Shown here piece after piece: positions 640 through 23,676 of a stretch of DNA of 24,549 nucleotides. The stretch comes from Spirogloea muscicola (Eukaryota > Streptophyta > Zygnematophyceae > Spirogloeales > Spirogloeaceae), in the NCBI GenBank assembly GCA_009602725.1, contig WELB01000011.1, positions 1 to 24,549 of the forward strand, in the 5' to 3' direction. Under the pieces are notes generated by a model that was not told where the DNA came from, did no database searches, and worked only from the letters and a program-made list of their open reading frames with translations. A program made the position numbers and the translations under genes. Position 1 is the first letter of the stretch. Every line of letters starts with the position of its first letter.

Positions 640-862
640 TTCACCGTCGCCCAACAGCTGCGGCCGGCTAGGACCAGTGGACTCACCCACGATAGCTGCG
701 AGCGGGACATCCAGCCGCTCGCTCGCAGGGGTGGTGGCCACTGCATCCGGCCGCTCGCTTGCAGGGGTGGTGGCCACGGTATTAGACCGCTCGCTCGCAG
801 GGGTGGTGGCCGCTGCGGCCGATCCCTTTCGCTTCTTGGCACCCTTCTTGCCTGCCATTGAC
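640..862 (-). CDS. Possible N-terminal exon of an unknown lysine-rich protein with 12-residue repeats
   Basis: I do not recognise this protein. On the minus strand an ATG at about 862 opens 'MAGKKGAKKRKGSAAAATT', a basic patch resembling a nuclear localisation signal. It is followed by three copies of a 12-residue unit of the form ATTPASER plus four residues, then a neutral stretch up to the N at 638. The reading frame is open, and the repeat period of 36 bp keeps it open, which mildly supports coding. No donor site, later exons or homologous domain were found, and downstream (leftward) sequence is LINE. It may be the first exon of a gene cut by an assembly join or insertion, or a chance frame over a minisatellite. 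Confidence 0.25.
714..825. repeat. 36-bp minisatellite, three copies
   Basis: The core GCAGGGGTGGTGGCC starts at 725, 761 and 797, a strict 36-bp period with point differences between units. On the minus strand it encodes a 12-residue repeat containing ATTPASER. It is a direct tandem repeat without unique spacers, so not a CRISPR array. Confidence 0.85.
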
Positions 863-1240: not shown

Positions 1241-2330
1241 ACTAATACTAGTAGAGTTCTAACACTAGATTCCGGCTTTGCCGCCGTCGCGCTCCTGAAT
1301 TCCATATTGCTCCTTCATCAGCGTCGCGCGCCATTATTCAGAGATGCGCTTTCTCTAATATCGCGCGCCCGTCCTTCGCCTCCTCAGTACCCCATCCAGC
1401 TATCATTCCCATGATATAGATGTTCCATCTTGTGTAACTTCGTTACATGTTGCCTCTCTTTAGTGAGTTAAAGATTGTCTGCCCTGCCTGGTGCTGATTA
1501 CTCTGCATATTGACAGAGAAGTCTTAGACAAAAAGCTAGTACCTGTCAGATATATAAAGACAGACCTAGCTAGCCGGCTCGATCATGCTAGTCCTGATAG
1601 ACCCCACTCGTTGCAGTCTTCTCTCTGCTTCGCCGAGGATTGCAATTGTATGGCCTATTCCCATTGAATTTAGCAGGGGCAGGGGGGGAGCTGCAGCTCC
1701 GAGATGGGGGTACTGACAGAGTTCACATTGTATCTGCTCGATAACTTAATAGGTGAGCCAACACCAATAAAGCTATCGCCGATGGCGAAAACATATGTGA
1801 TATCCACCAAAGGCGTTGCTTCATAAAAGAATGTGGAAGTACACACCCGTCGGTGCACCAAATGTAGTTATCCACCAGAAATGGCCGTGCTCATAGATTG
1901 CCTCGTCAGCTGCTTCTCAGCCAGTTACACTTATTAGATCCTCGTAGTTGGAATGGTAGTCCGGAGGAGAAGTCAATGAGCTGGAGTGGATGATGGACGG
2001 CAATTGCGACAATTTTCGACTGACTCAACTTAGCAGCTTTTCGAATGAGAGAGAAACAGGTCAAGACCAAGACGACAAGTATTATTGGCGCTTTGATACC
2101 TGGGACCAAATTTGAATGTCTCGGTTGGCCTCCAACCGAGAATGCCATATCCGTCAGCTGAGCGCCAGCGACTTTCTTGTTCGTTCGTTCATCACATAGT
2201 GTCCACGCCAGAGATATGTATAGTCGATGTTACATGATTTCTGAGTAAGAATGACGTCCTAAAACAATTGACATCCACATGCATGACAGGTCTAGCAAGA
2301 CAATCTGTACCCATATATAAGACGAGAAGA
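1241..2330. other. AT-richer stretch without a recognisable gene
   Basis: About 1.1 kb of moderate GC. Minus-strand frames of 63-80 codons exist (for example 1906-2148, with a hydrophobic run 'APIILVVLVLTCFSLI'). They show no family pattern, no convincing splice continuation and no link to the hydrolase gene on the right. It could be intergenic, a decayed element or an untranslated region. Confidence 0.35.
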
Positions 2331-2400
2331 GAAGTGAGCTCCTCCAAAAGGGGGGTGCGGCTGTGAATGGCCAGCCCATAAAGAATGGCCTTAAGACCCA
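2331..2400 (-). mobile_element. Decayed LINE 3' hairpin relic
   Basis: In minus orientation it reads as the LINE 3' end: CATTCTTTATGGGCTGG, a short loop, CAGCC, then a tail corresponding to GGAGGAGCTCACTTC. The hairpin lies at 2359-2377. The closest layout is that of the copies at 17610-17690 and 18240-18290. No protein tail remains. Confidence 0.55.
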
Positions 2401-2659: not shown

Positions 2660-4881
2660 TCATGACATTACAAAATCATGTATGTGTGAATTGATAGTCT
2701 TGAAATCATCCCACATCAACCAATATGTGAGCTGCACGAGTGCAAAGAGACGGTACTTCATAAGTGGAACAACTGGTCACTGCTTCATCCAATCATGAAT
2801 GGGATGCTTTGTCATCGGGCTCAGCGAGTCATGCACATGCACTGAAGAGCACCGAAACGAGCTCGTGAAGTAAGTGGTGGCTACTTAACACTACCGTGCG
2901 TTCGACACGTGCATAAGGGAGGACAATGGAGAGCCAAGGTCGACGTAAAAGCACAAATTTCAAGCTACTGGGTGTATAAAGACATTGTCTCGACAGATAC
3001 TACACTGAGATGGAAATATGAAGTAGGAGGCTATCAAACCTGCGGAAAGTGGAACACTTGTTGATGAGGTACCAATTTCGTTGGAGTTGCCATCATGTCA
3101 GCAGTAGCATATTTATCCTTCTCTCCCCAGAGAAGAAGTACAGGAATGAATGTTGGTACAGTGGGCTCTTGAAACCAGAGTCCTTTGAAGAATGCTCTAT
3201 GATAGTTGATTGAACAACACAAAGCTCCAGGTACACTGAAGGCTTCCACATGCCTGGAAGATATCGAGTTTGTTAGTACGTCGTCTCAAACTTGCATAAC
3301 AATGATAGCTCAATAGTAGAATGTGACTCGAAGCAACCTACTTGGTGACGTCCTCTTCAGAAAGCCTTTGAAGAGGTTCTCGCTCATATCGACGTCGCAG
3401 CTTCTTGTATCTGAGCTATAAGACAGACCGTTCGATGTGTACATGCACCAAGCAGCACTAGGTCCTGGCTACTGATCAATACACCAACCTCACAAGTGAA
3501 GGTCGAGAGCAATAGCAAGGGAGATTCACCTCCAAATTGTAGCACAAGCGTGGCTTATTCATTCACTTTGCGACCCAGAATGCATAAAGACAACATACGA
3601 GAAACCTTTTGCTGACCCCTGACAGTGTTGGACAAAGGTTAAGACTCTGCGAGGTCACATCCAGTAGCGTGAAGAAGAGCTTACCTGTTGAGGGTCATAA
3701 GTATTTCAGGAATGCTTGGAATCTGGAAGATATCTGAGAAAGCAAAGGTCATGACACTCTTAAGGTCGTTAATGAGCGGCACGGCAAGGCATCAATCAGT
3801 CAAGCTAAGCTCACCAAGTCCTATTTGCTAACATGTCCAGGTTGAAGGGCAATGTCATCTGTCTTATGGTGCTCTACTCCATTCAACGAAAGTAGCACAG
3901 CAGCACTAAGTGCACGAGGGATGCTCAGAAATTGTATACAAGTCATGACCGAGCCGAGCACAAGGTAAGCAAGGTACAGAAGAGCCGGAACATACACCAA
4001 TACCAGTATCGTAAGGCTTTAGTAGGGGTTCGCCAGAGCGAAAGGGCCCCTTTGAGCACTTTCGGGTGCGGTCCATTGAGCACAATCAACTTCTGTAGCT
4101 TGTCAGGGTAATCCATCGCAAAAGCCCAAGCAACCAATGCTCCCCATCCATGGCCCACCTGGGATCACGCATGTGCAGGGCGTAACAGGACGACCACAGC
4201 AAGGTTGCTGCACAGCGGGTATGCAAGTCAGGCAGACGTTTTATGATGGGCAGGTGGGTCTGGCACAGCTGACATCGCACCAAAGCCAATGCGGTTGTCC
4301 TTGAAGATGTGACTGCAATGACTGCCGCTAGGTCGTCCGTCAGCTGCTTCTGGCTGTAATTACAGATGCCGGGAATCTGGGAAGACAGGTTGTAGCCCCG
4401 CAAGTCCAGACCGACGACATGGAGTCCAGCCAGCGCCAAGGGTGCAAGCTGGCGGCGCCAGCTGTACCAGAATTCGGGGAAGCCGTGGAGGAAGACGACC
4501 TGCATGAGCGTCAAGCACGTGAATCTCGTGGCTGCCGTGCGAGACAGAATATTTATCGGACATGGCTGTGCGTCTCCAAGCTAGAGCAGTATGAGCAGCA
4601 TAGTCAGGCTGCTGAGCACTTCTGTACTCGGGAAGTGGTGGCCAGGGAGGCCTTGCCGGCATTCGTCGTCGAGAGCTTGCAGCACAAGGCAGAGTTGCAC
4701 AGGGCAGGGCGCTGGCGTATTGTGCTGGAGCTCGGCGGCTCACCGGTCGGCGAGCGAGGTCGCCACCCTCGACATAATGCAAGGAGACTGGTCCACGGTG
4801 AAGCCAGCGGTGGACGAGCTCGGCGCCGTCCACGCGCTCGCAGGCAGGAGGAGAGGGGCCCGGCGGGGAGCCGAGCGCCAT
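2660..4881 (-). CDS. Epoxide-hydrolase-like alpha/beta-hydrolase, 7 exons, catalytic residues replaced
   Basis: Exons (minus): 4881-4744, 4499-4281, 4158-3996, 3733-3685, 3410-3342, 3253-3040, 2731-2660. All junctions are GT-AG and all phases close to give 307 aa, about the usual length of plant or microbial epoxide hydrolases. In order: N-terminal 'LHYVEGG', oxyanion loop HGFPEFW (51-57), nucleophile-elbow region 'VGHGWGALVAW' (120-130), lid 'IFQIPSIPE', 'INYHR', acid region 'LWGEKDKY' (Asp259), and a last helix 'WDDFKTINSHIHDFV'. Active epoxide hydrolases have HDWG at the elbow and SHW near the C-terminus. Here these read HGWG (Gly123) and TYW (Tyr287), so nucleophile and base are both missing although the frame is intact. 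Family assignment is strong. Hydrolase activity is doubtful; a pseudoenzyme, or a decaying gene, is likelier. The first ATG after the upstream LINE relic was chosen as start. The last exon is the least certain. Confidence 0.85.
3266..3274 (-). promoter_or_regulatory. Canonical branch-point sequence TACTAAC
   Basis: On the minus strand TACTAAC lies about 20 nt before the CAG acceptor of hydrolase exon 6 (3253). This matches the optimal spliceosomal branch site and supports the intron 5 boundary. Confidence 0.6.
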
Positions 4882-5091: not shown

Positions 5092-5200
5092 TTCATTTTT
5101 GAATTGGCCTCCCTTTCAATTCATGCGCCCCGCGCGCCTTCTCTCTCTTTTGGGCTGGCTTTCCCAGCCCCTATCCTCAATGGGCGAGCACTTTGTTGTT
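5092..5200 (+). mobile_element. Hybrid LINE 3' end: subfamily B followed by subfamily A hairpin
   Basis: First comes the B module: GAATTG and CAATTC separated by 10 nt, then ATGCGCCCCGCGCGCCTTC. It runs directly into the A hairpin GGGCTGGCTTTCCCAGCCC (5152-5170) and its tail AATGGGCGAGCACTTTG. B before A in the same sense also occurs at 5505-5722, so this is a structured composite and not a random junction. Confidence 0.7.
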
Positions 5201-5504: not shown

Positions 5505-5722
5505 GCGGAGAAAGTGGGCGATGGGCGAGCACTTTCTTCCTCGAGAAAGTGGCTCTCCCAATGGGGCAAGAAGGGCTCGCGCAAGAGAGAGGAAGCGCGG
5601 CCAGATTGACTGGTGGGCTGGGAAAGGCCAGCCCAAAGACATGGACAATGTCTGAAGGAGCCGGAGAGAAAGCGCGCGGTGCGCATGAATGTGAAAGAGA
5701 GGCCAATTCAAGCCTTACAATA
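5505..5722 (-). mobile_element. Hybrid LINE 3' end (B then A) with opposed tail fragments
   Basis: In minus orientation: B module (about 5716-5666), a spacer, the A hairpin (5615-5634), then a variant tail matching 13460-13510 and 19020-19050. At the left edge a plus-sense tail word, GATGGGCGAGCACTTTC (5520-5536), faces the minus-sense tail, giving two LINE 3' ends end to end. Confidence 0.65.
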
Positions 5723-6704: not shown

Positions 6705-7236
6705 GCTCACACCCAGCTAACTGTGCCACCACGGCTGGGTATGCGGTCGCCTGCGCTGCTCGGGCCAAAGAGCTGGAGTACGCGGATCATCCGCGGGAAG
6801 ACGAGTTCTTCCCGTTGGCCATCGACACACATGGGGCGCTGGGCGCTCGGTGGCTCGAGCTGCTCACCCAGCTCGCCCGCCACACCATCGCCCGGCGCTT
6901 TCATGGAGAGCCGGTTGACTTCCCTGCAGCCGGGTCGCTGGCGCAAGTGTATCGAATGCGCCTGGCCGTCTCGCTGCAAAGGTCCATGGCCCGGGCGCTG
7001 CACCTTCGTGCCGGCAGAGCCCTCGCTGCTGCCTCCGGTTCTGGCCAGGGGACCCACTTCCAGGAGCCCAGCATCTCTGATCTGCGGCTGCTTAGCAGGG
7101 GTTACTGAGTGTCTCGTAGCTGCTTTTTTTCTGTTTCTTAGCGCTTCCCCTGGCCCCCTTCTCGTACTCTGTTCATTCTTTTTCGGGCTGGTTGTTCCAG
7201 CCCCTATTCTCAATGGGCGAGCACTTTCTGAAAGCA
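6705..7236 (+). mobile_element. Best-preserved plus-strand LINE C-terminus with complete 3' UTR
   Basis: One frame, from about 6711, reads 'NCATTAGYAVACAARAKELE', 'DEFFPLAIDTHGALG', 'DFPAAGSLAQVYRMRL', 'QRSMARALHLRAGRALAAAS', then 'SISDLRLLSRGY' and TGA at 7106-7108, with no interruption. It defines the consensus of the tail domain. The 3' UTR holds GCGCTTCCCCTGGCCCCC, the hairpin at 7185-7203 and AATGGGCGAGCACTTTC. It is only the last 130 or so residues of a retrotransposon protein; no reverse transcriptase remains. Confidence 0.85.
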
Positions 7237-7283
7237 ATTTTCCTGACGAAAGCCAGAGGCTGCATGCGGATGGAAGCTTAGTA

Positions 7284-7410
7284 CCCAGAGTGAGCAGCAG
7301 CAAGTCCGAGTAACTCGCAGCTGGGAAAGAGGCACTCACTCCGCCTAGACTCAGATGCAGCAGCCTCGGTGCGGAACACAAGCGCTAGCCAGCGGCGTTG
7401 AAGTCGGCCT
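7284..7410 (-). mobile_element. LINE tail remnant at the eIF2B beta 5' flank
   Basis: In minus orientation it reads 'DFNAAG', then, after internal deletions, 'SASFPAASYSDLLLLTLGT'. The deletion joins the middle of the tail domain to its end. It stops about 74 bp before the eIF2B beta start codon. Confidence 0.6.
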
Positions 7411-7483
7411 GCGCTGGAGTCCCACAGCGCCTCCGCTCCCAGGCTCCCCAAGCTCCCCGCCTGCCCTCGCCGGGCCGCCCTGC

Positions 7484-10022
7484 ATGGCCGACGCGCTGCC
7501 CGCCCTCGTCGCCGACCTGGCCGCCCGCCTCCGCCGCAGGTGAGACGCAGAGAGCACAGGGCGAGGTGCGGAGACGCGCAGAGGGGGGCCGCGGCTCTTG
7601 CCCTCCTCTCCTCCTCTCTCCCTGGCGCCTCACCAGTCACCCCCTCCTTCCCTCCCACCGCCGGGGCTGAGCCACTGAGACGGCCCGAAGAGGCCAGCCT
7701 GCGGGCCAGGCACATGGCACTCCACAGCTTCCTCTGTATGCACTTGGCCGGCCACCGCAGCCGCCCCAGAGTGTCAGCAGCCGCTCCCGCTGCTCGCCTG
7801 CAGGCAGGTGGAAGGGTCCATCCACAGCGCCCGGCGCACCGCCGAGCTGCTGCGGCAAGTCATCTCGCAGCACCGCATGCCCGCTGCCGGCCCCGCCGCC
7901 CCCGCGCTCCTTGACGCCGTCAGGGCCGTCGGCCGCCTCCTCACTGCCGCAAACCCCACCGGTGGGCGCCTCGCCTTTGCGCCTCGCCCAGCTGGCTTGC
8001 GCCCTCCTTTGCTCGCTACTGACCCACCGTTTCCGCGAGGCCTGCTGCGATCAGAGCTGGCAGTGGGCAACATCGTCAGGCGCGTCCTGCACATCATCCG
8101 CGAGGAGGATGTGGCTCTTCTTGCTGAGGCCAGCGCCACTGTAGCTGCCGCTGTGTCTGGCCAGAGCTCGGAGGCCAATGGAGCAGTTGATTTGCTGAGC
8201 CGCCAGCACGGAAGCGCCGCACAATCGGCAGCGGCCTCCAACATCAACGCACTCCGTGCCCCTTCTCTCTCCAATCTGCTGGAGCTCCCAGTGGAGCGTG
8301 GCACCAGGTTGAGGCAGGAAGCTGGCAGTGCCCAAGATTATGGCAGTCCGATGGAGTCGGAGGTCAAGAGCAAGCGTAATCCTCGCTCTTCATTGCCTGT
8401 CTGCGACCCATCATTCCAGCTGCGTTCAAGAAAGCTACATTGTTGTTCTCGGGTGTTGTGTTATCACGTCCATGCTGCAGCTTCGAGTGGAGGAAACACA
8501 TAAGCTTGGATACTGAAGGGCTGCTGTCTAGCACTACCTGTGTCCAGTGATGTCTCACCTCAAGGGCAGTCAGGGGTCTGTGTCATCTCCCTGCTGATTT
8601 GGTGACCCCCATGGCTCACAACAGTTGGTAAAGGCAAGCATTCTTGGAGCTGGAGATTGAAGCACAATGTCATTGAGGGGGTGAACGAGTTACTCGACGA
8701 GATTAACAATTACTCGTCCCAGGTGGCAGACCAGGCCCTGGAGCACATCCACCAAAAGTAAAGCATCGCCTCCTCCTGGACGGAGGTCGTCATCTCGCAG
8801 GAATGCGTATAGCGAAAGGCCCCCAGTGTACACAACTTGCGGGTTTAGGGTTTTGGCTTCCTTGTGGAATCTTAAGGCAGTGTTGTACAGACTCACAGGA
8901 AGCTCTTGATCTTGCTGTGCAGTGAAGTAATACTAACAGTGGGTCGGTCCCCTACTCTATTGAAATTCTTCAAAGAGGCAAAGAAGAAGCGCTTGTTCCA
9001 GGTGGTTGTGGCAGAAGGTGCTCCGAGGTTCGATTGACACCCTCTACATGTCAGATACTCCACATTTTTTTGTCAGATGTCCGTGCCTGTACTTGGACCT
9101 ACTTAATATGTTACGACTTCTATTTCAACATTCAGATATGATGGACAAATTCTTGCAAAGGAGCTCGCAGCGGTGGGGGTTCAGACGACATCGATAACTG
9201 ACTCGGCAATATTTGCCATGATGGCCCGCATCAATATGGTAAGGCTCGTGCTGTCAGCTCGCTGAGATGCGTTAGGCAGCTGTTATGGGTTTAGGGTTAG
9301 CAGTAGCTAATGCCTGTTGTAGCACATTGGGTTGGACTTGACCAGCAGGGTGTGGCAGGTTATTGTTGCAGCGCACGCTGTGATGGCTGACGGAGGCGTC
9401 ATAGCGCCTGTGGGGTTGCACATGACAGCCTTGGCTGCTCAAAGGCATGCTGTACCCTTTGTTGTGCTCGCTGCTGTCTTCAAGGTCAGGAGCTCCATGA
9501 CTCGCAGCATAAATAGGGCTTGGACTCAATGATTATGCACAGCCTTCTGCATGTGCGTGACACTGCTTTCTTGGTTCTGGGCAGCTGTGCCCCCTGTTCC
9601 CACAGAATCATCCGTCGCAGTTGAACGAGCTGAAGTCGCCTGCTGCCATCTTGTCTGTGGGCGACTATGCTGCATGTTTGGCGGGTGCTCCTGGCCCTCC
9701 TCCTACACATGTGCCGAATCCAGCCTTTGACTACATTCCTCCACATCTCATCTCTCTCTTCATAACAGACACGTAAGACATTCTAGCTCCCCATGTCACT
9801 GCTTGTGTCTTTAGCAGCTTTGCACTGTGCGTGCTTGTGCCAATGAGCCTCCTCGGCCTATACAAGCCCCAGTATTTCTGATTGCGGTCGAGCGACAGAA
9901 TGGTCTTGTCAGTAATTGTCAGTAATTGCAACAGCCTGTGCTGTTGCAGTGGAGGTCACAATCCATCTTATATGTACAGACTGGTGCAAGAATATTACAG
10001 CCCCGAAGACTTGACAATATAG
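7484..10022 (+). CDS. EIF2B2: Translation initiation factor eIF2B, beta subunit, 9 exons
   Basis: Exons: 7484-7539, 7804-7961, 8055-8375, 8634-8757, 8923-9027, 9136-9238, 9359-9484, 9585-9772, 9950-10022. All introns are GT-AG and phases close to 417 aa. eIF2B is the cytosolic GDP-GTP exchange factor for eIF2; beta is one of its regulatory subunits. Family signatures: N-terminal helical 'ELLRQVISQHR' and 'AVGNIVRRVLHIIREED', then 'KHNVIEGVNELLDEI', 'QALEHIHQNEVILTVGRS', 'VVVAEGAP', 'ITDSAIFAMMARIN', 'MADGGVIAPVGLHMTALAA' (about 298-316), 'FDYIPPHLISLFITDTGG' (from 379) and C-terminal 'YMYRLVQEYYSPEDL'. Exon 3 carries an alanine/serine-rich insertion of about 80 residues relative to the animal protein. 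Intron 2 (93 bp) is open and a multiple of three, so retention would not break the frame. Identification is firm; exon 4's acceptor (8633) is the least typical. Confidence 0.94.
8841..8854 (+). repeat. Telomere-type word in eIF2B beta intron 4
   Basis: GGGTTTAGGGTTTT, about two units of the TTTAGGG repeat used by plants and many green algae. It is too short to be a telomere and is an isolated intronic word. Confidence 0.5.
9287..9300 (+). repeat. Telomere-type word in eIF2B beta intron 6
   Basis: GGGTTTAGGGTTAG, two TTTAGGG-like units in the same orientation as the word in intron 4 of the same gene. Confidence 0.5.
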
Positions 10023-13924: not shown

Positions 13925-14125
13925 AAAGAGAGAGAAGGCGCGCGGGGCGCATAAAATGATATGGAGGCCAATTCAAGCCGACACATTGTTCAAAGCAGTC
14001 AGTCGTGACAACGTCGGCGATGAGCCGAGGCCCCCCGCCGAGCGCGCTGGCGACGAGATCGGCGCGCCGGGTGTGGATGCGGCTATCCGCCCCAGCGGTC
14101 GGAGGCATGATGCTGGTATTCAAGA
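13925..14125 (-). mobile_element. LINE nuclease-domain fragment joined to a subfamily B 3' end
   Basis: Minus strand from about 14115: 'IMPPTAGADSRIHTRRADLV', 'ASALGGGPRLIADVVTTDCF', then directly the B module beginning GAACAATGT and ending near 13927. The RRAD and ADVVTTD motifs resemble the restriction-like endonuclease (PD-(D/E)XK type) found C-terminal to reverse transcriptase in early-branching LINEs. The protein tail domain is deleted between nuclease and 3' end. Function is inferred from motif spacing only. Confidence 0.6.
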
Positions 14126-14160
14126 GGGGCTGGCAGAGGCCAGCCCGAGAAAAATGGACA
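14126..14160 (-). mobile_element. Isolated A hairpin fragment
   Basis: GGGCTGGCAGAGGCCAGCCC at 14127-14146 followed by AGAAAAATGGACA, the sequence that flanks the hairpin on its 5' side in minus-oriented copies. The tail is missing. Confidence 0.5.
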
Positions 14161-14190
14161 GAATTCGGGGACGAGTTCGTCTCACTGGCC

Positions 14191-14248
14191 ATTCTTCTTG
14201 GGCTGTCGTTGCCAGCCCCTCGTCTCTATGAGCGAGCAATATCTTTCT
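14191..14248 (+). mobile_element. 58-bp micro-insertion: hairpin plus tail only
   Basis: ACTGGCC is duplicated at 14184-14190 and 14249-14255. Between them lie a 9-nt lead, the hairpin (14200-14218) and the tail ATGAGCGAGCAATATC. Nothing else of the LINE is present. Confidence 0.85.
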
Positions 14249-14275
14249 ACTGGCCGTCGATGTGCGCGGGGCTTT

Positions 14276-14341
14276 TGTCCATTCTTTTTTGGCTGGCTTC
14301 TGCCAGCCCCTCTCTTCTATGGGCGAGCTCTTTCTTCTTTC
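14276..14341 (+). mobile_element. 66-bp micro-insertion: hairpin plus tail only
   Basis: GGGCTTT flanks it at 14269-14275 and 14342-14348. It comprises GTCCATTCTTTTTT, the hairpin GGCTGGCTTCTGCCAGCC (14291-14308) and the tail ATGGGCGAGCTCTTTC. It lies 27 bp from the previous micro-insertion, in the same orientation. Confidence 0.82.
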
Positions 14342-14759
14342 GGGCTTTCGGGTCTCAGTGGCTTGACCTGTTGGCCAGGCTTGCGCGACACAGTGTGTCC
14401 CGTAGGTGAGGCGAGCAGGCCGACTTCAAAGCCACTGGATTGCTAGCGCAGGCGATTGCATGCGCCTGTCCATATCACCAACAATTCATGACCCACGCCT
14501 TGCATCTGCGTGCTGGCCGTGCTCTAGCTGCAGCCTCTGGCTTTCGTCAAGGGGATCGCTTTCCGGCTGCTACTATCTACAATTAGCAGCTCCTAACTAG
14601 AGAATACTAAGTAAACTCCTACCGGAACAGCTTTGGGGAAGCGCTTTTGGCCCCTTCGAACCTTGTCATTTCTTTGCAGGCTGGCTGTTCACACCCCTTG
14701 CTTACTTTGAGAGAGCCACTTTCTTACAGCCGTTGCCTTCCATTGAAGAGCTATTTCTT

Positions 14760-14980: not shown

Positions 14981-15515
14981 AAGAAGTGGCACCCCAATGG
15001 GGGCAAGGGCTGTGAAAAGCCAGCCCGAAATGAATTGACAAAGGTTCGAAGAGGCCAAAACACGCTGAACAGCTACGAAGGGGCAAGGAGAAGGGGCCTG
15101 AAGAAGCTATGGCTGTACGGAGGGGAGGATGGACCACTCACTAGTCACTAGTGAGGAGCCTCAAATCTGACAGACTAGCTGCCGGAAAACCATCCCCCTG
15201 ACGAAAGCCGGAGGCCGCAGCGAGAGCACGGCCAGCACGCAGATGCAAGGCTTGTGCCATGGACAGCTGAAGGGAGACCGCCAATCTCATACCATAGACT
15301 GGGGCCTACGAGCCAGCGGCGTTGAAGTCGGTCGGCTCACCGCGCCTGTGGAACACAGCTTGCCGCGCAAGCCTGGCCAGCCGGTCGAGCCACTGGGATC
15401 CAAGAGCCCCGTGCACGTCCACAGCCAGGGGGACGAACTCATCTGCAGCAGGGTGGTCGGCGTGTTTGGCTGCCTTGCTGCAAGCAGCCTTCGCCGCAGC
15501 AAGAGCTGCTCCTAG
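14981..15515 (-). mobile_element. Minus-strand LINE tail with 3' UTR and hairpin
   Basis: Minus strand: 'GAALAAAKAACSKAAKHADH', 'DEFVPLAVDVHGALGSQWLD', 'RLARLARQAVFHRRGEPTDF', 'MRLAVSLQLSMAQALHLRAG' with frame breaks, 'ASLSDLRLLTSD', stop near 15146, then a 3' UTR, the hairpin at 15007-15026 and tail TTGGGGTGCCACTTC. It supplies the empty site (CCATGGACAGCTGAAGGG, about 15258-15275) for the micro-insertion at 19419-19486. Confidence 0.8.
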
Positions 15516-19284: not shown

Positions 19285-19532
19285 CTCAGTAGTTACGTGG
19301 GAGAAGCCTCAAATCCGACAGACTAGCTGCCAGTAAACTATCCCCCTGACGAAAGGCGGAGGCCGCAGCGAGAGCACGGCCAGCACGCAGATGCAAGGCG
19401 TGGGCCATGGACTGCTGATAGAAGAAGAAGTGGCACTCCTAATGGTGGCAAGGGCTGCGACAAGCCAGCCCAAAAAGAGTTGACAGGCTGAAGGGAGACT
19501 GACAATCGCATGCGATAGACTTGGGCCCACGA
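19285..19532 (-). mobile_element. LINE tail with a 68-bp micro-insertion
   Basis: With 19419-19486 removed, the minus strand reads 'RSWAQVYRMRLSVSLQQSMA', 'HALHLRAGRALAAA' with a shift, then 'SLSDLRLLPRNY' near 19290. Nearest relative: the copy at 14981-15515, which lacks the insertion. Confidence 0.75.
19419..19486 (-). mobile_element. 68-bp micro-insertion: hairpin plus tail
   Basis: GCTGA is repeated at 19414-19418 and 19487-19491. The insert is a short lead, the hairpin GGGCTGGCTTGTCGCAGCCC (19452-19471) and the tail TTAGGAGTGCCACTTCTTC in minus orientation. Confidence 0.82.
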
Positions 19533-20993: not shown

Positions 20994-23676
20994 ATGGCCA
21001 CGCTGCCCGCCGCAAGACTGGCGGCCGCTCCCCCTCTCGCGCCGCTGCTCCTCCAGCCCGCCCGCCGCGCCGGCCCGGCCGCCCGCCTTCCACCCCAGCT
21101 CCGCGAGCTGCTGCGCTGCCGGCGCGTCGCCTCGCCGCTGCACATCAGCTGCGGCTTTGTGCGCGACGGCCTGCTCTTCTCCCAGGCTCCGCGTGCGTGG
21201 AGCTACCTCCCTCATCCTGAGCCATCAGCTCACTGCTTCTGCTGCAACTGGAACTTGATGCTTGCCCGAGGCAATGCAGCTGAGCCTGGTGGATGGCTCT
21301 CCTGTTTGAACCCGGCAGGTCGGACGCTCCTTCTGCAGGGGGCTGCTGCTGTCGTCATGTCGCAGGCAGCCGCTGGCGAAGGCGCTGTAGCTGCTCCAGC
21401 CGCAGAGTCTGAGGCTGTCAACTTTGCGAAGACTGACGACCGGCGCATGCTGCATGTGGTGTACCGCGTTGGTGATCTGGACCGGACCATCAAGTAGGCT
21501 TGACTGTTTCCTTGTCACACTCGTGCACCAGCAGAGATCCATGCAGCATACACCTTGCGAGGATGCTGATATAAGGCTGGTGAGGGCAGCAATGCAACTT
21601 GAGGCTGCGCGGCTGCGAGCAAATTGGCCAGGTTCTACACGGAGTGCCTGGGCATGAAGTTGCTCCGCAAGCGCGACATTCCCGAGGAGAAGTATTCCAA
21701 TGCTTTTCTCGGCTACGGTCCTGAGACCACGAACTTTGCCGTCGAGCTGACTTACAGTTAGTAGCTTCTGATCCTTCTGCACGGCAAGGTTGCAAGAGTA
21801 GATGACTGAATGCAGGATGCAGGCCGGAGCCCTCGACAGACTGTGGTGTCCATTTGCTGACCTTCGGTCCTCATCTGTGAGCAGACTATGAGAAGGACAA
21901 GTATGACCTGGGCACTGGCTTTGGACATTTTGGTATTGCTGTTGAGGATGTGAGTACAGCCTGTCCACTACTTACAGCTCTCAGCAGCAATCCTTCCTGG
22001 CTGGCGATGCCGCAGCAGACATAAGTTCACACATGTGACAATGCCGCTACTACTGGCAGAAGTACAATGCTCAAAGGCTGAAAGATTGTAGGAGATCATG
22101 CAACCTCAGTCAATGTACTCAACGGAGCAGGTCCACATGATGACAAGTGTGCACCTTCGTGGTCCTCAGACACTTACCTCAACAGCTGACTCATAAAATA
22201 TGCACCCTCTACGCATCTTCTATGTGAATGATTGACCGAAATGTGCTAGCTGGTTGTTGCACTGGCGTTGTTCATGTACAGGTTCCCAAGACAGTTGAGC
22301 TTGTGCGCGCCAAGGGTGGGAAGGTGGCCAGGGAACCAGGTCCAGTGAAAGGTGGAAAGACTGTGATAGCATTCGTTGAGGTTGTTATCTCTCTACCAGC
22401 TCTGGCCATGACCTCCCAATGACTCTGATGCGTGAGACTTAGCGAGCCAGAGTTAGCTCCTCCACTGCAGTGCGAGTAGACGGGGGATGAGGATGAGGGT
22501 TGATGACTGGAGGGTATAGCCAGGCAGGAGGGCTGAGATGTTGAAGAGCTGTGCAGGATGCAGATGGATACAAGTTTGAAATCCTGCAGAGGCCGTCAAC
22601 GCCAGAGCCTCTTTGCCAGGTCATGCTGCGAGTTGGTGACCTGGATCGCTCCATTGAATTCTATGAGAAGGTTCGTTTGTGCATGTAAAGTCTTGCCGCT
22701 CTGTCATTTGGAGGCTGCTTGTTGCTGTCGTTTTGAGTAGCTTGTCCACACTTGTTGGGCTGCCCATGCACATCAGCGGCCCTTCGAAAGGACAGTCCAT
22801 CTAGGCCTACTTGATGAGGCTCCTGCCTGCTATTGTCAGACAGGTAACGAGAAGCACACATCTGCTCTTGAGACATGAATTACTTACTGTACTGAGCTGC
22901 TTACTGCACTCGAGCTCCTCTCCCTTGGCAGGCGTACGGGATGAAGTTGCTACGCAAGCGCGATAATCCGGAGAACAAGGTATGCTGCGCACGTGCCAGC
23001 GTGACCTAGAGAGGGAGGAAGCTGACGCTGACAAGTGGCAGCATTTCGGCTCACGGCGACAGTAGCATGCAGATGACAAGTGGGAGCTTCTGATGATTGT
23101 CAACATGCAGTACACCATTGCAATGATGGGCTACGGGCCTGAGGAGCAGAACACAGTGGTGGAGTTGACGTACAATTATGGCACGAAAGAGTATACACAG
23201 GGAGACGCCTATGGCCAGGTGCTCACTTTGTTCTTGTCAGGCAAGGTTGTTGTGACGGGCTGGGCATGGAGCCCAGCATTTGAGTGGTAGGCCGCCAAAG
23301 CGAGAAGTGCTAGCAATGTGGTACTGACAGCAGAGCACCCTAACTGCTCTGCAGATTGCGATCAGCACAAATGACGTCTACAAAACAGCAGAAGCCGTGA
23401 GAGAGGCTGGTGGCAAGATCACAAGAGAGCCAGGCCCGTTGCAAGGCCTGAACACCAAGATCATGGCTTGCCTGGACCCAGATGGCTGGAAGACGGTGAG
23501 TGAAGTGGCCACCACACAGCAGGGAGACGGGAAGGATCTGGTGCGAGGTGTCTTGCCATCGGGTGACGGAAGAGTGGATGTGCCAATCCTGCCATGCACT
23601 GGGCCTGAGAGGTTGTGCGTACGTGGGCGAGCAGGTGTTCGTGGACAAGGAGGACTTTCTCAAGGAGCTGGAGTAG
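20994..23676 (+). CDS. GLX1: Glyoxalase I (lactoylglutathione lyase), two-domain plant type, 10 exons
   Basis: Exons: 20994-21192, 21319-21493, 21632-21756, 21885-21949, 22282-22380, 22557-22670, 22932-22979, 23111-23218, 23355-23495, 23635-23676. All GT-AG, phases close to 371 aa. The enzyme isomerises the hemithioacetal of methylglyoxal and glutathione to S-lactoylglutathione. Residues 1 to about 100 form an Ala/Arg/Leu-rich extension without acidic residues at first, resembling a plastid or mitochondrial transit peptide. Domain 1 (about 109-235): '[20 protein letters not shown]', '[12 protein letters not shown]', '[16 protein letters not shown]'. Metal ligands are His112, Glu163, His181 and Glu229. 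Domain 2 (about 240-371): '[19 protein letters not shown]', '[14 protein letters not shown]', '[17 protein letters not shown]'; equivalent positions are Gln242, Glu293, Gln311 and Val359, so it is not a metal site, as in known plant homologues. Intron 1 (126 bp) is open and in frame. Identification is firm. Confidence 0.96.

What the first reader, a model, noticed from the sequence alone, without database searches (positions are those of the whole stretch)
14161..14360. Micro-retrotransposon insertions of 58-68 bp consisting of a 3' hairpin and tail
Two insertions (14191-14248, 14276-14341) sit 27 bp apart in one LINE copy. Each is flanked by a 7-nt target duplication (ACTGGCC, GGGCTTT) and contains only a hairpin (GGCTGG-loop-CCAGCC) and about 30 nt of tail. 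Removing both restores the host reading frame. They are far shorter than usual dead-on-arrival LINE copies, so the hairpin plus tail may be all that is needed for reverse-transcriptase recognition and integration. About thirty such hairpins occur in 24.5 kb, so this could be a very dense population of minimal mobile units. Conserved 3' stem-loops recognised by the LINE reverse transcriptase are known for some families (for example UnaL2-type); such short inserts at this density I infer to be unusual.
Basis: partly seen in the sequence, partly recalled or inferred. Interest (0 to 1): 0.85.

Follow-up and report, generated by a model that had tools for sequence, protein, structure and literature searches.

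The report
Very short broken-off retrotransposon copies
The two 58- and 66-base inserts are real, but they look like the short end of a continuous range of unfinished copies made by a recently active jumping gene, rather than a new kind of miniature mobile element.

Summary
Both inserts (14191-14248, 14276-14341) have exact 7-nt target duplications. Thirty-nine other genomic places match the joined host, without either insert, in one unbroken match each (84-92% identity); the window's own match splits with two 7-nt overlaps.

The hairpin+tail is the 3' end of a LINE. Two copies sharing 3,927 bp at 99.9% identity end in it. Their ORF has an R2-like reverse transcriptase; a low-confidence model of its C-terminus best matches the R2 endonuclease region. 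Sixty-six places have an identical 107-aa C-terminus.

I find no separate 60-bp class. At 60 exact-hairpin sites the 5' ends fit a constant drop-off near 0.5% per nt, though a systematic sample holds more short copies than its own fit. Truncation runs on through the hairpin: a few inserts carry only tail, the clearest 25 bp with a 10-nt duplication.

Best reading: target-primed reverse transcription of this LINE, usually aborted within a few hundred nt. LINE inserts under 50 bp are already reported for Anolis CR1 (PMC5389967).

The parts
14167..14433 (+). host: fragment of the C-terminal ORF of the hairpin-bearing LINE family (DEFVSLAVDVRGAFGSQWLDLLARLA...), a pseudogene
   Evidence: 39 paralogs without the inserts elsewhere in the genome
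14184..14190 (+). target duplication 1, upstream copy (ACTGGCC; second copy 14249-14255)
   Evidence: 7-nt overlap of the split match
14191..14248 (+). insert 1, 58 nt: short 5' piece, hairpin, tail
14269..14275 (+). target duplication 2, upstream copy (GGGCTTT; second copy 14342-14348)
   Evidence: 7-nt overlap
14276..14341 (+). insert 2, 66 nt: TGTCCATTC... piece, hairpin, tail
   Evidence: covariance model hit 71.9 bits. The breakpoint scripts overran this one into its neighbour (extent 108), so its ends rest
14124..14160 (-). third hairpin element next to the finding, opposite orientation, tail cut short
   Evidence: nhmmer and R1 hits; the paralogs begin at query base 6 or later, so its edge lies near 14166
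6785..7105 (+). C-terminal ORF of a longer copy of the same LINE family, 100% identical in protein to 65 other genomic places
7185..7229 (+). hairpin and tail at the 3' end of that LINE copy, 76 nt after its stop codon
   Evidence: same layout in the two 3.93-kb copies
2318..2395 (-). another short insert, 78 nt, 9-nt duplication (ACCCATATA 2309-2317 / 2396-2404)
   Evidence: coordinates read
5518..5542 (+). 25-nt tail-only insert without hairpin, 10-nt duplication GAGAAAGTGG (5508-5517 / 5543-5552)
19426..19485 (-). short insert (about 63 nt) in a LINE fragment; empty paralog at window 15090-15313

Best explanation
The inserts are extreme 5'-truncated ('dead-on-arrival') copies of a recently active LINE whose RNA ends in a conserved hairpin plus pyrimidine-rich tail. 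Inferred mechanism: the LINE protein (R2-like reverse transcriptase, probable restriction-like endonuclease) engages the 3' end of its RNA, nicks the target and primes cDNA synthesis at the tail. It usually falls off within a few hundred nt, and the stub is sealed in with a short target duplication. A 58- or 66-nt insert is what remains when it stops about 10-15 nt past the hairpin. Shown: the inserts, their duplications, the empty sites, long source copies with the same 3' layout, the RT domain, and a continuous truncation spectrum that includes tail-only stubs. Supported by a low-confidence model: the endonuclease domain. Inferred: RNA recognition by the hairpin, the priming point, and abortive synthesis as the cause.
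For: Exact inserts and duplications; 39 paralogous empty sites. Source: two copies sharing 3,927 bp at 99.92% identity, stop codon 76 nt before the hairpin, ending ...GGGCGAGCACTTTCTTCT. RVT_1 8.3e-16; best solved relatives are R2 proteins, 7e-07. The modelled C-terminal domain matches R2 chains in the top six rows, Z 10.2-8.2, next 5.8. 66 of 150 scored places with a 100% identical 107-aa C-terminus. Among 60 exact-hairpin sites the 5' extents fit a constant hazard of 0.0051/nt (chi-square 6.3 over 12 bins), with 9 of 60 under 40 nt against about 11 expected. Exact 24-mers of the active subfamily fall from 1121 at the hairpin to 171 (-300), 87 (-600), 42 (-1000), 36 (-3500). Duplications of 7 nt or more at breakpoints: 39 of 208 against 17.3 shifted / 16.0 permuted; short class 14 of 81 against 6.8 / 5.1. 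Tail without hairpin or with its 3' arm only: 19 of 96 strict tails by script, reversed control 0, of which 4 carry a degenerate hairpin by eye.
Against: Most copies show no detectable duplication; in the short class none of 81 reaches 9 nt, as by chance (0.6-0.8). Neither of the two long copies has one of 6 nt or more. In the systematic sample 33 of 87 copies lie under 40 nt where its own constant-rate fit expects about 23; I put this down to diverged copies, which is not shown. The drop-off slows with length: 42 words at -1000 against 0.6% of 1121 expected, and 16 of these 42 continue to -3500. Hairpin pairs show no more compensatory change than shuffles (3 cells against 4.0). A proposed closing helix failed its test. 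The endonuclease model is of low confidence (pLDDT 54.4), and Foldseek's best match is only E 3.3e-03.
Confidence: 0.9

Rival explanations
1. The hairpin plus tail is an independent, SINE-like unit of about 60 nt with its own transcript, mobilised in trans by the LINE protein.
For: Hairpin and tail are shared by several subfamilies with different sequence upstream; inserts of 44-76 nt with candidate duplications recur; in the systematic sample 33 of 87 copies have under 40 nt of recognisable sequence upstream, about 23 expected from its own fit; a slight maximum at 20-39 nt in pooled data (35 of 227).
Against: No clustering of 5' ends at 60 exact-hairpin sites: extents 5, 6, 9, 9, 15, 23, 28, 28, 39, 42 and so on, fitting one hazard. 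Tail-only stubs shorter than the proposed unit exist. Diverged copies lose detectable upstream similarity, which would inflate the short class in the systematic sample (inference).
Confidence: 0.06
2. The inserts are fragments of older, longer LINE copies left by deletion or rearrangement.
For: Many hairpins in the window lie in nested LINE debris.
Against: Exact 7-nt duplications hug each insert and 39 paralogs lack both inserts, which deletion inside an older insert would not by itself produce at such short spans twice.
Confidence: 0.02
3. The inserts are short DNA transposons (MITEs) or introners.
For: Short inserts with 7-nt duplications inside a reading frame.
Against: The two inserts have no terminal inverted repeats and unlike ends (sequence, by eye); 3' ends are shared and 5' ends vary, as in LINEs; the same 3' end is continuous with a reverse transcriptase ORF. 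Splice use was not tested.
Confidence: 0.02

Closest known systems
CR1 (and L2) LINE insertions of Anolis carolinensis (PMC5389967; passages, section 15)
   Same: 5'-truncated copies that keep the 3' end; many severely truncated inserts under 50 bp; truncation probability falls with distance from the 3' end; under 10% (CR1) and under 7% (L2) full length
   Different: Those clades are APE-type LINEs of a lizard (recalled); here the LINE is R2-like with a probable restriction-like endonuclease. By exact words, -1000 is 3.7% as frequent as the hairpin
Restriction-like-endonuclease LINEs, R2 group (PMC5678591, PMC7650587; passages only)
   Same: long ORF with R2-like reverse transcriptase, C-terminal domain whose model best matches the R2 endonuclease region, 5'-truncated copies of many lengths
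   Different: dispersed copies instead of a fixed rRNA site; zinc knuckle spacing by eye CX1CX12HX3C, not the CX2-3CX7-8HX4C given for the group
Stringent-type LINEs recognised through a 3' stem-loop (UnaL2, zebrafish L2; PMC4176376, PMC3747384; passages only)
   Same: a conserved hairpin at the 3' end followed by a short tail, shared by related elements
   Different: no covariation above control here; recognition by the protein not tested; tail is pyrimidine-rich

Membership tests
5'-truncated LINE copies | shared 3' end, variable 5' end | tested here: met
5'-truncated LINE copies | short target-site duplications | tested here: met
   for the two inserts exact 7 nt; for the population enriched, 39 of 208 against 16-17, most without a detectable one
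5'-truncated LINE copies | a long coding element with the same 3' end in the genome | tested here: met
   L100, L101; full length not proven, the 5' end is where the two copies cease to match
restriction-like-endonuclease LINE (R2 group) | single ORF with R2-like reverse transcriptase | tested here: met
restriction-like-endonuclease LINE (R2 group) | C-terminal restriction-like endonuclease | tested here: inconclusive
   model order helix-3 strands-helix-strand-helix; top six VIA rows R2 (Z 10.2-8.2) but pLDDT 54.4; Foldseek best R2 at E 3.3e-03, none at 0.001; sequence search of the related family I C-terminus found no relative
restriction-like-endonuclease LINE (R2 group) | N-terminal zinc fingers and Myb motif | tested here: inconclusive
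   CxxC...HxxxxC fingers by eye; Pfam only below cut-off, 0.087; no Myb row listed
restriction-like-endonuclease LINE (R2 group) | no APE endonuclease domain | tested here: met
   no such Pfam row in the 1328-aa frame at E up to 5
stringent-type LINE with recognised 3' stem-loop | conserved stem supported by compensatory changes | tested here: not met
   stem conserved in sequence (71.9% of cells paired, 33.8-56.9% when slid), compensatory cells 3 against 4.0 in shuffles
stringent-type LINE with recognised 3' stem-loop | protein binds the stem-loop; its loss abolishes movement | not testable with these tools
   needs a bench assay
SINE / minimal independent unit | discrete 5' end shared by copies | tested here: not met
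   at 60 exact-hairpin sites
MITE | terminal inverted repeats | tested here: not met
   inspection of the two inserts only

The most novel reading that the evidence does not exclude
Short RNAs made only of the 3' hairpin and tail, for example processed or independently transcribed ends of LINE RNA, serve as templates in trans, so that a roughly 60-nt or even 25-nt end is a self-sufficient retrotransposition substrate that litters the genome at around 100,000 copies.
Probability: 0.06. Interest if true: 0.8.

Novelty: new member of a known kind. Interest (0 to 1): 0.33.

Why it matters
The LINE appears recent and very prone to stop early. By rough extrapolation (0.645 hairpins per kb x 153 Mb) there are about 100,000 hairpin-bearing copies. 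By exact markers, the word 300 nt upstream is only 15% as frequent as the hairpin word (171 against 1121), a low estimate, since the window's own longer copy misses that marker. Stubs of 25-100 bp are easily overlooked by repeat annotation (inference), can frameshift genes and disturb gene models, and give a natural assay of reverse-transcriptase drop-off and of what the 3' end alone can do.

Tried and rejected
Closing helix: in some copies the GTCCAT motif upstream can pair with ATGGGC in the tail. Own pairs were not better than permuted ones among 183 copies (-7.45 against -7.37 +/- 0.15; 1429 of 5000 permutations as good), so it is dropped. Hairpin covariation was sought on 40 diverse copies and was not above control.

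A plain search for the longest repeat flanking each hairpin was uninformative because pyrimidine tails match by chance. A first local-alignment breakpoint script left many short copies unassigned and was replaced by an anchored one, which still overran the second insert of the finding into its neighbour.

I first took L078 (family I) as the source LINE. Twenty more loci showed that family I has a different 3' end, so the source was looked for again with the family II C-terminus. The family I query is therefore not a census of the hairpin LINE. I also first read the counts at -1000 and -3500 (42, 36) as a plateau of the same copies; linking the places shows that only 16 of the 42 carry both words, so that reading is dropped.

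Rfam had no match at gathering scores. Of the 17 'tail' rows, by eye 4 carry a degenerate hairpin, 5 sit behind another tail, and 8 (one ambiguous) are isolated; only the window case has a long duplication that is not pyrimidine repeat. Passages of two further papers were read and not used (PMC2734521; PMC3446292).

Full report
Observation. The host is a LINE protein fragment; joining the flanks reads GDEFVSLAVDVRGAFGSQWLDLLARLARHSVSRR*, so the frame is rejoined but the copy is a pseudogene anyway. A 135-nt query with both inserts left out matches 39 other places in the 153-Mb genome across both junctions, each as one row, at 84-92% identity, a few with small indels (40 scored of 949 candidates). 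The window's own match breaks into 1-30, 24-50 and 44-135: the two 7-nt overlaps are the duplications. These are insertions.

Density. The strict hairpin pattern occurs 8 times in the window against 0.15 expected. A profile of hairpin plus tail, built from these sequences, finds at 16 bits or more 29 copies in the window and 87 in 134,896 readable bases of 16 systematically placed 10-kb stretches (two of them all N; 0 to 15 copies per stretch), with none in reversed sequence. That is 0.645 per kb, or roughly 100,000 per genome if the sample is fair. One exact 20-mer of the hairpin occurs 1526 times (748+778), its reversed control 0.

What the hairpin is. It is the 3' end of a LINE. Two copies with unlike flanks share 3,927 bp at 99.92% identity. 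Their ORF stops 76 nt before the hairpin, and the shared sequence ends GGGCTGGTTGTTCCAGCCCCTATTCTCAATGGGCGAGCACTTTCTTCT, with one variant base between them. Full length is not proven: the 5' end is where these two copies cease to match. The window's own longer copy (6785-7229) has the same layout. The ORF has a reverse transcriptase (RVT_1 8.3e-16; best solved relatives R2 proteins, 7e-07). Its last 270 residues, modelled from 12 aligned copies at low confidence (pLDDT 54.4), match R2 proteins in the first six VIA rows (Z 10.2 to 8.2, 141-156 residues), the next row being a spliceosome core chain at 5.8; the tool warns that models without relatives often reach Z 7-8, and Foldseek's own best match, again R2, has E 3.3e-03 with none at 0.001. 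The 107-aa C-terminus is 100% identical over its whole length at 66 of the 150 places scored (the window's included), and the 150 are at least 94% identical: the family appears recent.

A related LINE family is present too. Twenty loci picked from the list show that family I, although its protein is homologous, ends ...CCTCCCTTTCAATTTCATGCGCACCGCGCGCCTTCTCTC in the loci where its end could be read, generally without the hairpin. Family II ends found in the same loci (L085, L093 twice, L099) carry it: the profile match begins 90-105 nt after the start of an LL(T/S)RGY-stop motif. My first source candidate, L078, belongs to family I; a hairpin follows its 3' end directly, as in the window at 5118-5195 and in L093.

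Is there a 60-nt class? For 60 places with the exact hairpin, the length of family sequence upstream of the hairpin spreads from 5 nt to beyond 420 nt (8 open-ended). The drop-off is constant within error (0.0051 per nt; chi-square 6.3 over 12 bins), and 9 of 60 lie under 40 nt where about 11 are expected. Pooled over 258 elements the rate is 0.0069 (chi-square 7.2) with a slight maximum at 20-39 nt (35 of 227 at risk, 12.8% expected). In the systematic sample the rate is 0.0079 (chi-square 11.7) and 33 of 87 lie under 40 nt where its fit expects about 23.

Genome-wide markers. Exact 24-mers of the active subfamily fall from 1121 copies at the hairpin to 171 at -300, 87 at -600, 42 at -1000 and 36 at -3500. 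By linked places, 39 of the 87 at -600 also have the -1000 word, and 16 of the 42 at -1000 have the -3500 word; the other 20 places at -3500 lack the -1000 word. So the loss is steep at first and slower further on, slower than 0.5% per nt would give. These counts are rough: the -100 word occurs 1668 times because other subfamilies share it, and the window's own longer copy misses the -300 word by mismatches. On the printed places for C1-C4, C6, C7 and C8 below 335 kb, 24 of 62 hairpins have the -100 word 80-120 nt upstream on the same strand.

Truncation goes on past the hairpin. Among 96 strict matches to two tail types, 77 have a hairpin, 2 only its 3' arm, 17 neither by script; by eye, 4 of the 17 do have a degenerate hairpin, 5 follow another tail, 8 are isolated (one ambiguous). 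The reversed control is 0. The clearest is window 5518-5542: 25 nt of tail only, between two copies of GAGAAAGTGG; the candidate duplications of the others are 5-8 nt and mostly pyrimidine, so weak. If these are insertions, the hairpin is not needed in the inserted DNA, though it may still be needed in the RNA.

Target duplications in general. At estimated 5' breakpoints of 208 elements (50 of 258 dropped as open-ended or too near the ends of their loci), repeats of 7 nt or more are found in 39, against 17.3 at shifted positions and 16.0 with permuted partners; of 8 nt or more in 20 against 8.3 and 6.5. In the short class (under 60 nt upstream) they are 7 nt or more in 14 of 81 against 6.8 and 5.1, 8 or more in 4 against 2.0 and 1.4, and 9 or more in none. 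An earlier, cruder version gave 66 of 201 against 38.6 for 7 nt or more. Enrichment is clear, but most copies show none. Paralogous empty sites in the fetched DNA support further short inserts with overlaps of 4 to 9 nt, for example L056+320, L066+207, L037+217 and window 19485 minus (129 elements gave some candidate, many of them weak and not counted here; its output was cut).

Structure of the hairpin. Forty diverse copies keep GGCTG...CAGCC in sequence; compensatory changes do not exceed shuffled controls. The two inserts fold better than shuffles (z -2.95 and -4.46), three others tested do not or barely (z -1.94, -0.68, -0.07). A closing helix seen in one class failed a permutation test. 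That the LINE protein recognises the hairpin is therefore inference from its position and conservation.

Known kinds. In Anolis, truncated inserts keep their 3' end, and many CR1 inserts are under 50 bp (PMC5389967, passages and section 15). [quoted passage not shown] One review gives 100-1,000 bp as the lengths of truncated LINEs (PMC3747384, passage), which explains why 58-66 bp looked striking. The restriction-like-endonuclease LINE group is defined in PMC5678591 (passages).

Verdict. A real and striking landscape, with an ordinary mechanism as the best account: abortive target-primed reverse transcription of a recently active R2-like LINE.

Noticed in passing
L080-L098, L078 around 7260-7470: A second, homologous LINE family with a different 3' end (GGCTTGAATTGGCCTCCCTTTCAATTTCATGCGCACCGCGCGCCTTCTCTC), generally without the hairpin.
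   Followed up: partly
window 5118-5195; L078 7380-7470; L093 about 1060-1133; L019: The 3' end of that second family is directly followed by a hairpin element; at window 5147 one 7-nt duplication (TATGAAG) seems to enclose the composite, which suggests template switching or a fused subfamily.
   Followed up: partly
L032, L060, L063, L075, L027, L016 about 9250-9320: Tail units repeated head to tail without a hairpin between them, possibly slippage at the start of reverse transcription or repeated tail-only insertion.
   Followed up: partly
L100, L101: The two long LINE copies show no target duplication of 6 nt or more, unlike the two short inserts.
   Followed up: partly
G000 C20:1130796-1135995 and C338:9309-14508: A pair of inverted LINE copies about 4.9 kb apart with the same frame lengths appears on two contigs, perhaps a duplicated or alternative haplotype contig.
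   Followed up: no
window 708-816: Three tandem copies of a 36-nt unit inside a coding-like frame.
   Followed up: no
window 4086-4580 (-) and 21363-23500 (+): By eye from the translations, exons that resemble an epoxide-hydrolase-like protein and a glyoxalase-like protein; not searched.
   Followed up: no
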